DNA from: Myxococcota bacterium
GTDB taxonomy: Bacteria > Myxococcota > JAJVIH01
Length of the DNA: 64,000 nucleotides
Assembly: GCA_022072125.1 (NCBI GenBank)
Contig: JAJVIH010000051.1
Location: 1-64,000, forward strand
Reading direction: 5' to 3'
The notes under the pieces were generated by a model, which ran no database searches, was not told where the DNA came from, and was given only the letters and a program-made list of their open reading frames with translations. A program made the position numbers and the translations under genes. Positions within the stretch are counted from its first letter, which is position 1. Each line of letters opens with the position of its first letter. Of the stretch, positions 33,221 to 36,204 are shown one piece after another.

Positions 33221-34306
33221 CTATAGCCGGCGGATGCCCACATTGCGATCGGAGACCGCCATCTCCACCGCGTTCCACAACACCCGGGGGTCGAGCGAAA
33301 GGATATGGTTGACCTCGTGAATCGGCACGCAGGCGCAGCCAGGGCCGCGCGGCGGATTCATGCGGTTCCAGGCTTCGACGAAGCCCCAGGCCCGGCCATT
33401 GCCCTGTGTCTGCTGTTGCTGCGTGAACAGGCAGGGCGCGACGGTGCCGTCGCTCATCACATAGCCGAAGTAGCGGCCTGCGTAGCAATGGCTGCAGTCG
33501 CCGCCCAGGCGGCGGCCATCCCGCCGTTGCAGTTCCAGCACGGCGTATGAATTGCCGATGGGCCAGCCCTCGCGTTTCCGCGCCATCAGGGTTTCCGCCA
33601 GGCTGGCGATGGATTGCTGGCTGAACGATGCGCCGACCGGCGCGAATACATCCATGGTCTGGTCATGCTCGATCTGGAAAAATGCGGTGAAGCCCATGTC
33701 CCGGGCCAGTTCCAGCACATGATCCACGGTGGCGGCGCCGCGCGGGGTCATGACCGACATGGTGACCACCTTGACGCCCGCGGACTGGAATTTTTCGATG
33801 GCCGCGATGGCGCGGCTGTAACTGCCCTCCTGGCGCTGGGCGTCATGCACCTCGCGCGGTCCGTCGAGGGTGACGCAGGCGAGGTCCAGCGGCGCCACTT
33901 CGTCGAAGCGATCGGCGACGAACCATCCGTTGGTGTTCATGGTGGCGTAGACGCCGCGTTTCTTCAGGTGGCGGATGATCTCTCCCACATCCTTGCGCAC
34001 CATGGGCTCGCCGCCCATCAGGCTTGCGCGTCCCATGCCGGCGCCGGCCAGGGCGTCAATGCAGTCCCGCCACTCCTGGGTGTCCATTTCCGGCCGTTGC
34101 TGCTCGGGGATTTCACAATAATCGCAGCGGAAGTTGCAGCGGTTGGTCAGCGACAGGCTCATCTGATACGGGGCTTTCCGTCCCAGGGCCCGGCTGACCG
34201 CGAGTTTGATGGCGGGACGGGCGAGCGCCCAGCCGCGTTCCACGGCGGTGTGCCCGAACTGATCCTGATCGTCATACCGGCGGCGGCCGGAATTCTGTCG
34301 CCCCAC
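33221..34306 (-). CDS. Radical SAM/SPASM-like enzyme of unknown substrate
   Basis: A 361-residue radical SAM protein with the CxxxCxxC motif TNRCNFRCDYC at about residues 57-64 and GGEP (LMGGEPMVRKD). C-terminal Cys residues (CSHCYAGRYFGY, CLF and CAC) suggest an additional iron-sulfur site as in SPASM/twitch proteins. I chose the GTG at 34306 because GAGGAG lies eight bases upstream; the upstream open frame has no radical SAM character. No peptide substrate or partner gene is recognisable. It starts 90 bp downstream of the terminator of the sigma-54-driven RNA, so read-through could express it. Confidence 0.85.
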   Translation of the reverse strand: MGRQNSGRRRYDDQDQFGHTAVERGWALARPAIKLAVSRALGRKAPYQMSLSLTNRCNFRCDYCEIPEQQRPEMDTQEWRDCIDALAGAGMGRASLMGGEPMVRKDVGEIIRHLKKRGVYATMNTNGWFVADRFDEVAPLDLACVTLDGPREVHDAQRQEGSYSRAIAAIEKFQSAGVKVVTMSVMTPRGAATVDHVLELARDMGFTAFFQIEHDQTMDVFAPVGASFSQQSIASLAETLMARKREGWPIGNSYAVLELQRRDGRRLGGDCSHCYAGRYFGYVMSDGTVAPCLFTQQQQTQGNGRAWGFVEAWNRMNPPRGPGCACVPIHEVNHILSLDPRVLWNAVEMAVSDRNVGIRRL

Positions 34307-34396: not shown

Positions 34397-34432
34397 AAAA
34401 AAAAACCGGCGCCTTTGGGCGAAGGCGCCGGT
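34397..34432 (-). terminator. Rho-independent terminator of the sigma-54 RNA
   Basis: An 11-bp perfect stem, ACCGGCGCCTT (34405-34415) and AAGGCGCCGGT (34422-34432), with a 6-base loop. On the minus strand it is followed by a run of at least eight T. It lies 90 bp before the radical SAM start codon. Confidence 0.9.
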
Positions 34433-34618
34433 GCTGCCGGAAATCAACCCATCACAGGAGGGTAGACGGGTTCAGCCAAAAGGGTTGATCCCCGGAAGTA
34501 ACTGGTTCACACCTTGCGGTGCGAACCACGAACGCTGCCTGAACATCCCCGCCAGTCGCGGGCCCGACATGTGGTTCAGTCCGGGCTTTGTTCGAATCCG
34601 CGAGAGCTTTCTCTCTGT
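34397..34618 (-). ncRNA. Predicted sigma-54-dependent structured small RNA, about 222 nt
   Basis: No protein reading frame of note exists, but the minus-strand transcript predicted from the sigma-54 promoter start (about 34618) to the terminator folds into consecutive hairpins. H1, GAGAG-AAAG-CTCTC, begins at the third nucleotide (34602-34615). H2 has a CTGAAC/GTTCAG stem and an inner CCCGC/GCGGG stem (34539-34579). H3, TGGTTCgCACC-GCAA-GGTGtGAACCA, has a GNRA tetraloop (34503-34528). H4 has an 8-bp ATCAACCC/GGGTTGAT stem (34443-34489). The last hairpin is the terminator. It does not match 6S RNA, tmRNA, RNase P or SRP RNA by their conserved sequences. It could be a trans-acting sRNA or an attenuating leader of the radical SAM gene. 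Confidence 0.7.
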
Positions 34619-34628
34619 GGGATGAATT

Positions 34629-34644
34629 AGCAACCGCCATGCCA
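34629..34644 (-). promoter_or_regulatory. Sigma-54 promoter of the small RNA
   Basis: On the minus strand TGGCATG-GCGG-TTGCT matches the -24/-12 consensus TGGCAYR-N4-TTGCW at every defined position. The start predicted 12 bases after the TTGC is an A at about 34618. It is immediately followed by hairpin H1. Confidence 0.88.
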
Positions 34645-35036
34645 AAAGATGATTTCCATCACAATATTTTATAAATCATTGTTTTTTATGAATTTTATTT
34701 GAATTTGCGGACGGAGATTCATTCCCGACCCGGATTTTGGCCCTGTGAACTATGCAAACAGGTGTATTGGTATGCAAATTGTTGCATCATCTTCCGTCGC
34801 TGGGAACGAGGTGGGGCGCAGGACTCTTCCTGACTTTAGAGTCGGCCGCCATTTGCAGGGCAGGGGATCGCGCCCTGTTTTGACACGGTGCGTGCAAACC
34901 GGGTTTCGCAGATCAGGCCGGTTTGGCCGCCCAGATGCGTAATTCTTTACCCATGGCAAAGGTGTTAGTTCATGAATCCGATGAATAAAATCTTTTTATT
35001 TCAACAATTTATGTGATCCATTCCGGGTGTCGGGGT
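34645..35036. promoter_or_regulatory. Shared enhancer region between two divergent sigma-54 promoters
   Basis: No gene is apparent. The region has the shape of an enhancer-binding-protein control region. An AT-rich stretch at about 34650-34712 contains ATGATTT (34649-34655) facing AAATCAT (34673-34679). A cluster of TGCAAA elements follows: TATGCAAA at 34751-34758 and again at 34771-34778 (20 bp apart) and TTGCAT at 34782-34787, which together with the second copy makes the palindrome ATGCAA-ATTG-TTGCAT; further TTTGCA is near 34852 and TGCAAA near 34893. A near-consensus IHF site, TTTCAACAATTTA, lies at 34999-35011. The binding roles are inferred. Confidence 0.5.
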
Positions 35037-35052
35037 TGGCATGCTGTTTGCT
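35037..35052 (+). promoter_or_regulatory. Sigma-54 promoter of the small membrane protein gene
   Basis: TGGCATG-CTGT-TTGCT is a full match to the -24/-12 consensus. The predicted start is near 35063, 28 bp before the ATG at 35091. It is the mirror image, on the other strand, of the RNA promoter 400 bp away, with five of seven -24 box bases and the whole -12 box identical in both. Confidence 0.88.
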
Positions 35053-35090
35053 TTGATTCCCTCGCCTGTAACAACCATGGGGTGTCAACA

Positions 35091-35483
35091 ATGAACTCAC
35101 CTTTGCTTCATGCCCGGAGAATCATGGTGCTGGCCGCGGCCGCCACCCTGATCACCCTCTTTACGGGGATTGAAGGCGTGTGGATGGCCAAGGTGTCTCC
35201 GGTTTTTGACTCTTGGCTTCCAGCGGTCAGCACCACCATCGCGGGGGTTGTTTCCCTGCTGTTGGCGATGCGCCTGCGCCAGGCCTACAAAACCCGCATG
35301 ACCCTGCTGTTGCCGCTGGGGCATGTGGTTCAGATTGCGGCCGCCCTGGTGCATGTCGGCGTTTCCGGCTGGGTGCTGCTCGCCGTGGCGGCGCCGCTGT
35401 CGGTTTTCTACGCCATCACCGCGTTGCGGTGGGTGGAGCGCACCCGCGAACTGGCGCGCATCCTCCCTGCGTTTGGCAATTGA
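35091..35483 (+). CDS. Small four-helix membrane protein
   Basis: A 130-residue protein with four hydrophobic segments: around residues 13-32 (VLAAAATLITLFTGIEGVW), 45-63, 75-95 (LLLPLGHVVQIAAALVHVG) and 97-117. Charged residues cluster at the N-terminus and in loops, suggesting an inner-membrane protein. No family recognised. It is the only protein gene driven directly by the plus-strand sigma-54 promoter. ATG at 35091 has a weak GGGGTG upstream. It ends before a two-tier hairpin terminator. Confidence 0.75.
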   Translation: MNSPLLHARRIMVLAAAATLITLFTGIEGVWMAKVSPVFDSWLPAVSTTIAGVVSLLLAMRLRQAYKTRMTLLLPLGHVVQIAAALVHVGVSGWVLLAVAAPLSVFYAITALRWVERTRELARILPAFGN

Positions 35484-35495
35484 TCAGCGTCCCCC

Positions 35496-35577
35496 GGACG
35501 CCAGCATGAACAGTTTCCAGCCTTTCCCCCTCCAGGCTGGCTACTCCTCCGGTTCCTGCTGGCGTCCATGCTTTTTT
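35496..35577 (+). terminator. Two-tier hairpin with T run
   Basis: An 11-bp outer stem GGACGCCAGCA (35496-35506) and TGCTGGCGTCC (35557-35567) encloses a 7-bp inner stem CCAGCCT (35517-35523) and AGGCTGG (35534-35540). ATGC and six T follow. It is more elaborate than an ordinary terminator and sits 19 bp before the pcp ATG. Confidence 0.7.
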
Positions 35578-35595: not shown

Positions 35596-36204
35596 GTGCG
35601 TATCCTTTATACAGCATTTGAACCTTTCGGCGGACGGCCTTCCAACCGCTCCCTGGAGTTGATGGAGCAGGTGCGCGAACGCGCGGATGGATATCTGCAC
35701 CTGCAAACCCGCGTGCTCCCGGTCACCTGGCAAGGAGTGAGGGAGCAGGTTCCCGGGTTGCTCGCTTCCCGGGGAGATTTCGCGCCGTCCGCCCTGATCC
35801 TCACCGGCGAATATGATCGGGGCTGGGGGCTGAGACTGGAGACCACCGCGCGCAACCGCCAGCATTCCATCCAGCCGGACAACGCCGGACAGGTCCGCGA
35901 GGAAGAACCGGTGATCGCGGATGCGGCTCCGGCTTTGATGACCGTGGTCCCGGCGGAACAATGGGCGGCGGAGTTGACCGCGCTGGGTGTTCCCGCCTTT
36001 GTCAGTCAGGACGCCGGAACCTATATCTGCAACCAGTCCTATTATCTGGCGCTGCACAACGCCCCGCCCGGATTGCCCGTGTTGTTTGTTCACATTCCCC
36101 GGGAACTGGAGCCGGCCCCGGAGGGTTTTCCTGCTCCCGGCCCCGGCAATCTCGCCGGAGGCATGCTCCACCTGATCTCGTGGATGGCCGGCCTGGGCGA
36201 GTAG
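35596..36204 (+). CDS. pcp: Pyroglutamyl-peptidase I family protein
   Basis: A cysteine peptidase that removes N-terminal pyroglutamate. The 202-residue protein shows the fold start MRILYTAFEPFGGRPSN and the catalytic triad residues: E82 (LETTARN), C145 in GTYICNQSYY and H166 in VHIP. The typical glycine-rich GQAGGR segment is altered to TGEYDRGWGL, so substrate recognition may be shifted. It is likely transcribed separately from the upstream membrane gene because of the hairpin terminator. Confidence 0.85.
   Translation: MRILYTAFEPFGGRPSNRSLELMEQVRERADGYLHLQTRVLPVTWQGVREQVPGLLASRGDFAPSALILTGEYDRGWGLRLETTARNRQHSIQPDNAGQVREEEPVIADAAPALMTVVPAEQWAAELTALGVPAFVSQDAGTYICNQSYYLALHNAPPGLPVLFVHIPRELEPAPEGFPAPGPGNLAGGMLHLISWMAGLGE

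What the first reader, a model, noticed from the sequence alone, without database searches (positions are those of the whole stretch)
34629..35052. Two perfect sigma-54 promoters facing away from one intergenic region
TGGCATG-N4-TTGCT occurs twice, on opposite strands, about 410 bp apart, each a complete match to the -24/-12 consensus. One drives a structured RNA and the other a small membrane protein. Sigma-54 needs an enhancer-binding protein, so the AT-rich and repeat-rich space between them is likely a shared activation region for a coordinated response. Both promoters being perfect makes chance unlikely.
Basis: partly seen in the sequence, partly recalled or inferred. Interest (0 to 1): 0.85.

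Follow-up and report, generated by a model that had tools for sequence, protein, structure and literature searches.

The report
Back-to-back sigma-54 promoters, RNA and protein
In a bacterium with no close sequenced relatives, one 390-base stretch of DNA carries two matching sigma-54 promoters that face away from each other, one for a small structured RNA and one for a small membrane protein, so one signal could probably switch on both.

Summary
TGGCATG-N4-TTGCT occurs exactly twice in the window, at 34629-34644 (-) and 35037-35052 (+); 0.01 matches are expected by chance. The whole genome has 12 such sites against 0 for the reversed control. It encodes one RpoN, about 15 full enhancer-binding proteins and an IHF beta subunit.

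Both predicted transcripts are self-contained: a 222-nt structured RNA ending in a strong intrinsic terminator (minus strand), and a 130-aa membrane protein gene followed by its own terminator-like hairpin (plus strand).

(1) Each promoter has an IHF-like site in the same orientation and at nearly the same place (31.5 and 33.5 bp upstream of the -24 element); this recurs at other sigma-54 promoters here. (2) The middle of the spacer is GC-rich and carries four TGCAAA boxes, with dyads centred 135.5 bp from each promoter. TGCAA boxes also precede the comEC sigma-54 promoter. (3) Neither product was found in 194 other genomes of the phylum, so conservation could not be tested.

Best reading: one shared sigma-54/IHF control region firing a small RNA and a membrane protein. 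Transcription, the activator and the RNA's targets remain unproven.

The parts
34629..34644 (-). sigma-54 -24/-12 promoter of the structured RNA, TGGCATGGCGGTTGCT; predicted start 34618
   Evidence: exact match, chance 0.01 per window; 12 vs 0 genome-wide
35037..35052 (+). sigma-54 -24/-12 promoter of the small membrane protein gene, TGGCATGCTGTTTGCT; predicted start 35063
   Evidence: exact match
34397..34618 (-). predicted 222-nt small RNA: 5' hairpin, GNRA-capped hairpin, 14-bp stem with a 31-nt loop holding mostly unpaired CCCUCCU, then terminator
   Evidence: fold -96.9 kcal/mol, z -3.8, 0 of 200 shuffles as stable; loop unpaired probabilities 0.59-0.93; no Rfam family at gathering score
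34405..34432 (-). intrinsic terminator of the RNA: 11-bp GC-rich stem and T8
   Evidence: fold
34672..34684 (-). IHF-like site AAACAATGATTTA, same orientation as the RNA promoter, 33.5 bp upstream of its -24
   Evidence: 1 mismatch to WATCAANNNNTTR
34999..35011 (+). IHF-like site TTTCAACAATTTA, same orientation as the protein promoter, 31.5 bp upstream of its -24
   Evidence: 1 mismatch to WATCAANNNNTTR
34751..34787 (.). candidate enhancer: TATGCAAA repeated at 20 bp, second copy forming the perfect dyad TGCAAATTGTTGCA (34773-34786), centre 135.5 bp from the RNA promoter
34852..34857 (-). fourth TGCAAA box (written TTTGCA on +)
34893..34910 (.). candidate enhancer: imperfect dyad TGCAAACCGGGTTTCGCA, centre 135.5 bp from the protein promoter
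   Evidence: sequence; TGCAAAC[A/C]GG repeat pair
35091..35483 (+). 130-aa, mostly helical small membrane protein; 28-nt predicted 5' leader
   Evidence: ORF; four helices, low confidence; only a sub-threshold Pfam match
35496..35577 (+). terminator-like long hairpin (GGACGCCAGCA/TGCTGGCGTCC) followed by T6, closing the protein transcript
   Evidence: fold -43.1 kcal/mol, z -7.35
33224..34306 (-). neighbour, probably not in the unit: radical SAM protein gene downstream of the RNA terminator
   Evidence: Pfam PF04055, 1.3e-20
35596..36204 (+). neighbour, probably not in the unit: pyroglutamyl-peptidase-like gene after the second terminator
   Evidence: Pfam PF01470, 7.6e-21

Best explanation
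The stretch 34397-35577 is a two-armed sigma-54 control unit. RNA polymerase with sigma-54 waits at two matching promoters that face away from each other. An enhancer-binding protein, encoded elsewhere, binds the TGCAA boxes in the middle of the spacer. IHF bends the AT-rich DNA just upstream of each promoter so that the activator can reach it. One signal would then fire both a 222-nt small RNA and a 130-aa membrane protein. The RNA most likely acts by pairing its exposed CCCUCCU loop with ribosome-binding sites of other messages. Shown by sequence: the promoters, the terminators, the RNA fold, the paired IHF-like sites, and RpoN, IHF-beta and enhancer-binding protein genes in the genome. Inferred: transcription, sharing of one activator through TGCAA boxes, and RNA function.
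For: Two exact sites against 0.01 expected; 12 against 0 genome-wide. RpoN, about 15 full AAA+ activators, IHF-beta over its cut-off plus two more HU/IHF proteins. RNA fold z -3.8 with terminator; protein transcript ends in a hairpin of z -7.35. Same-orientation IHF-like sites at 33.5 and 31.5 bp: chance about 0.5% from shuffled flanks. Across 19 independent sigma-54 promoters there are 6 such sites 20-36 bp upstream against 0.35 expected, 0 of 1000 shuffles; without these two, 4 against 0.16. TGCAA dyads: 22 in the genome, 5 of them (3 independent, this one included) within about 150 bp of a sigma-54 site. The 20-bp TGCAAA repeat recurs upstream of the comEC sigma-54 promoter. Distances fit the 80-150 bp usual for activator sites (PMC7910581).
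Against: No activator gene lies in the window. Spacing between TGCAA half-sites differs from the other promoters (4 against 7 bp), so it may not be the same activator, and the second dyad is imperfect. Some hexamer with four copies arises in 15% of shuffles. The IHF windows and patterns were chosen after seeing the sequence. No relative conserves the unit. No pairing target stood out.
Confidence: 0.6

Rival explanations
1. Two separate sigma-54 promoters that happen to be neighbours: each has its own activator bound at its own site (34751-34787 for the RNA, 34893-34910 for the protein) and they answer different signals.
For: Each promoter has its own dyad at the usual distance and its own IHF-like site. 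The two dyads differ in sequence and internal spacing. Other sigma-54 promoters here have unlike upstream dyads.
Against: Both dyads lie next to or contain the TGCAAA half-site (TGCAAACAGG/TGCAAACCGG) and mirror each other in distance; TGCAAA appears four times in 392 bp and is clustered nowhere else in the window.
Confidence: 0.25
2. The minus-strand RNA is not an independent small RNA but the leader of the radical SAM gene at 34306-33224, with the terminator acting as an attenuator.
For: Same strand, gene start about 90 nt past the terminator; no sigma-70 consensus promoter was found between them.
Against: The terminator is a strong GC-rich stem present in both the minimum-energy and centroid structures, with no competing antiterminator seen there, and no riboswitch or leader family matches.
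Confidence: 0.12
3. The sites are not promoters: they are outward ends of an inverted duplication or small mobile element, or chance.
For: They form an 82% inverted repeat of 17 nt.
Against: The sequences flanking the two sites are not alike (local alignment score at the null mean). The motif is enriched genome-wide and most sites precede genes.
Confidence: 0.03

Closest known systems
zraP / zraSR divergent sigma-54 promoters (E. coli, Salmonella; activator ZraR)
   Same: Two divergent sigma-54 promoters controlled by one activator, one product an envelope protein (PMC4987338).
   Different: There both products are proteins and the activator is encoded by one arm; here one arm makes an RNA and no activator gene is adjacent.
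GlmY and GlmZ small RNAs (sigma-54, activator GlrR)
   Same: sigma-54-driven small RNA with an upstream activator site (TGTC-N10-GACA, PMC4987338).
   Different: Different activator box, no sequence family match in Rfam, and no second outward sigma-54 promoter mentioned in what I read.
Pxr small RNA of Myxococcus xanthus (sigma-54, activator Nla19/PxrR)
   Same: Predicted sigma-54 promoter with enhancer region before a structured RNA, in a species lacking Hfq (PMC5684412, PMC5568312); Hfq was also not found here.
   Different: Pxr is 108 nt and lies beside its activator gene; this RNA is 222 nt, beside a radical SAM gene.
CrcZ/CrcY RNAs of Pseudomonas (sigma-54, activator CbrB)
   Same: sigma-54-driven regulatory RNA (PMC8657755).
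   Different: They act by sequestering Hfq-Crc; no Hfq found here.
CcsR1 RNA (CCUCCUCCC motif)
   Same: Exposed CCUCC-type motif and terminator.
   Different: 19.7 bits against a gathering score of 65.3.

Membership tests
sigma-54 (RpoN) promoter | -24 GG and -12 GC elements at fixed spacing, close to TGGCAYRN4TTGCW | tested here: met
   exact matches at both sites
sigma-54 (RpoN) promoter | genome encodes RpoN and AAA+ enhancer-binding proteins | tested here: met
sigma-54 (RpoN) promoter | activator site usually 80-150 bp upstream | tested here: inconclusive
   TGCAA dyads centred 135.5 bp from each promoter; binding not shown
sigma-54 (RpoN) promoter | RpoN-dependent transcription start | not testable with these tools
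   needs RNA mapping in an rpoN mutant
intergenic trans-acting small RNA | own promoter, stable fold, intrinsic terminator | tested here: met
intergenic trans-acting small RNA | conserved homologues or known RNA family | tested here: not met
   no Rfam hit at gathering score; only short fragments, mostly of the terminator, in 194 other genomes
intergenic trans-acting small RNA | base-paired targets | tested here: inconclusive
   small set of leaders, none clearly better than shuffled loops
divergent sigma-54 pair with one shared activator (zraP/zraSR type) | outward sigma-54 promoters around one spacer | tested here: met
divergent sigma-54 pair with one shared activator (zraP/zraSR type) | one activator needed by both promoters | not testable with these tools
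   shared TGCAAA boxes are suggestive only
Pxr small RNA | location beside its activator gene | tested here: not met
   no enhancer-binding protein gene in the window
Pxr small RNA | sequence relatedness to Pxr | tested here: inconclusive

The most novel reading that the evidence does not exclude
A lineage-specific switch in which one enhancer-binding protein fires a regulatory RNA and an unrelated four-helix membrane protein from a single back-to-back sigma-54 region, and the same TGCAA-reading activator also controls comEC, tying the pair to DNA uptake.
Probability: 0.15. Interest if true: 0.65.

Novelty: new variant of a known kind. Interest (0 to 1): 0.45.

Why it matters
Sigma-54 small RNAs and divergent sigma-54 protein promoters are each known. 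A mirrored pair giving one RNA and one membrane protein would be a compact way to adjust translation and the envelope together. The recurring placement of IHF-like sites, about 22 or 32-35 bp upstream of several sigma-54 promoters here, offers a simple rule for finding real sigma-54 promoters in uncultured relatives.

Tried and rejected
A first pattern with the wrong spacing (TGGCN6TTGCW) missed both sites and was dropped. Inverted duplication as the origin of the pair: flanks not alike. A second structured RNA in the middle of the spacer: fold no better than shuffles. A CRP-like site at 34648-34663: fewer such matches in the window than expected by chance, so not notable. Target prediction for the RNA loop: no signal. 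Homologues of the membrane protein: none in the phylum, no significant match in PDB, none in NCBIfam. Its fold model was low confidence, so no fold search was run. Relatives by the radical SAM neighbour: only three distant hits. Extra members of a TGCAA group: none convincing beyond those known, since the two added C44 hits lie at the coding starts of repeated genes.

Full report
Observation. The pattern TGGCATGN4TTGCT has exactly two matches in the window, 34629-34644 on the minus strand and 35037-35052 on the plus strand; shuffled sequence gives 0.01. Across the 4.0 Mb genome there are 12 matches against 0 for the same pattern read backwards, and 25 against 2 for TGGCAYRN4TTGCW. A published study in Myxococcus states the consensus as TGGCACG-N4-TTGC(T/A) (PMC7910581), so these sites differ from it by one base in the -24 element (C to T, a common variant) and are otherwise full matches. 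Most of the 25 sites precede a gene start by a short distance; three (C11:81738 and C44:4113 and 6524) lie in the coding start of lipoprotein-like genes on the other strand and are probably chance.

Machinery. The genome encodes one RpoN DNA-binding domain, about 15 full enhancer-binding AAA+ domains, three HU/IHF proteins of which one passes the IHF-beta cut-off, and no detectable Hfq. None of the enhancer-binding genes is in the window.

The two products. On the minus strand, from the predicted start 34618 to 34397, a 222-nt RNA folds at -96.9 kcal/mol (z -3.8) and ends in an 11-bp GC-rich stem with eight T. It has a long stem whose 31-nt loop exposes CCCUCCU, which could pair with ribosome-binding sites. 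No Rfam family matches at its gathering score. On the plus strand, start 35063 leads after 28 nt to a 130-aa protein with four predicted helices (low-confidence model), no family above cut-off, and then a long hairpin plus T6 (z -7.35). So each arm looks like a separate short transcript; the radical SAM gene and the pyroglutamyl-peptidase-like gene lie beyond the terminators.

The space between. It is AT-rich only beside the promoters and GC-rich in the middle. Each AT-rich part holds an IHF-like site, in the orientation of its promoter, 33.5 and 31.5 bp upstream of the -24 element; shuffling the flanks gives both at matching distance in 0.45% of trials. Other sigma-54 promoters of this genome repeat this: C7 and C22 at 34.5 bp, and a second group at about 22 bp, one helical turn nearer. 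Over 19 independent promoters there are 6 such sites against 0.35 expected, and 4 against 0.16 when this pair is left out. The distance range was chosen after seeing the data, so the figures are somewhat flattering.

Possible activator sites. TGCAAA occurs four times in the spacer and clusters nowhere else in the window, but some hexamer reaches four copies in 15% of shuffles, so this alone is weak. Independent support: of 22 TGCAA-N3-9-TTGCA dyads in the genome, 5 (3 independent, this one included) lie just upstream of sigma-54 sites, and the TGCAAA repeat with 20-bp period recurs upstream of the sigma-54 promoter of comEC. The perfect dyad TGCAAATTGTTGCA and the imperfect TGCAAACCGGGTTTCGCA are each centred 135.5 bp from their nearer promoter, inside the usual 80-150 bp. 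The half-site spacing differs from that of the comEC group, so identity of the activator is open.

Conservation. No genome of the same family, order or class came up among the relatives held. Neither the RNA (beyond short, mostly terminator-like fragments) nor the protein was found in 194 other genomes of the phylum. The unit may be lineage-specific or simply fast-changing.

What it works like and what it is. It works like divergent sigma-54 pairs such as zraP/zraSR, with one arm replaced by a sigma-54 small RNA of the GlmY, CrcZ or Pxr type. It meets the sequence definition of sigma-54 promoters. It is not a member of any Rfam RNA family. Sharing of one activator is the likely but unproven step.

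Noticed in passing
L033, L035, L039, L046 (contigs C9, C20, C25, C77, near contig ends): A sigma-54 site TGGCACGGGGATTGCT is followed by near-identical ~100-bp sequence at the ends of at least three contigs (C9, C25, C77; C20 ends at the site): a repeated sigma-54-driven element that breaks the assembly. Three copies (C20, C25, C77) share an upstream TGCAAC-N5-GTTGCA dyad and perfect IHF-like sites; C9 is the outward partner of an enhancer-binding protein promoter.
   Followed up: partly
L006, L042, L043 (C11:81738; C44:4113 and 6524): On the opposite strand, lipoprotein-like genes appear to start with runs of 8-10 C in the first codons, seemingly out of frame in at least one copy: possible phase variation by slippage.
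   Followed up: no
L045 / L083 (C54:14047): A sigma-54 promoter with TGCAA boxes and an IHF-like site directly precedes a ComEC-like DNA uptake gene (Pfam Competence and Lactamase_B).
   Followed up: partly
L004 (C9:105 and 291): A second outward-facing sigma-54 pair, about 170 bp apart, one arm driving an FHA-domain-like enhancer-binding protein, with a palindrome GGTATGTCAATTGATATACC between.
   Followed up: no
L032 (C6:52886): A sigma-54 site just before an rpoH-like heat-shock sigma factor gene; rpoH is also listed in the Salmonella sigma-54 regulon (PMC4987338).
   Followed up: no
L003 (C7:11729): A sigma-54 promoter with a perfect IHF-like site and a strong ACAAG-TTTT-CTTGT dyad precedes a predicted 40-aa peptide.
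   Followed up: no
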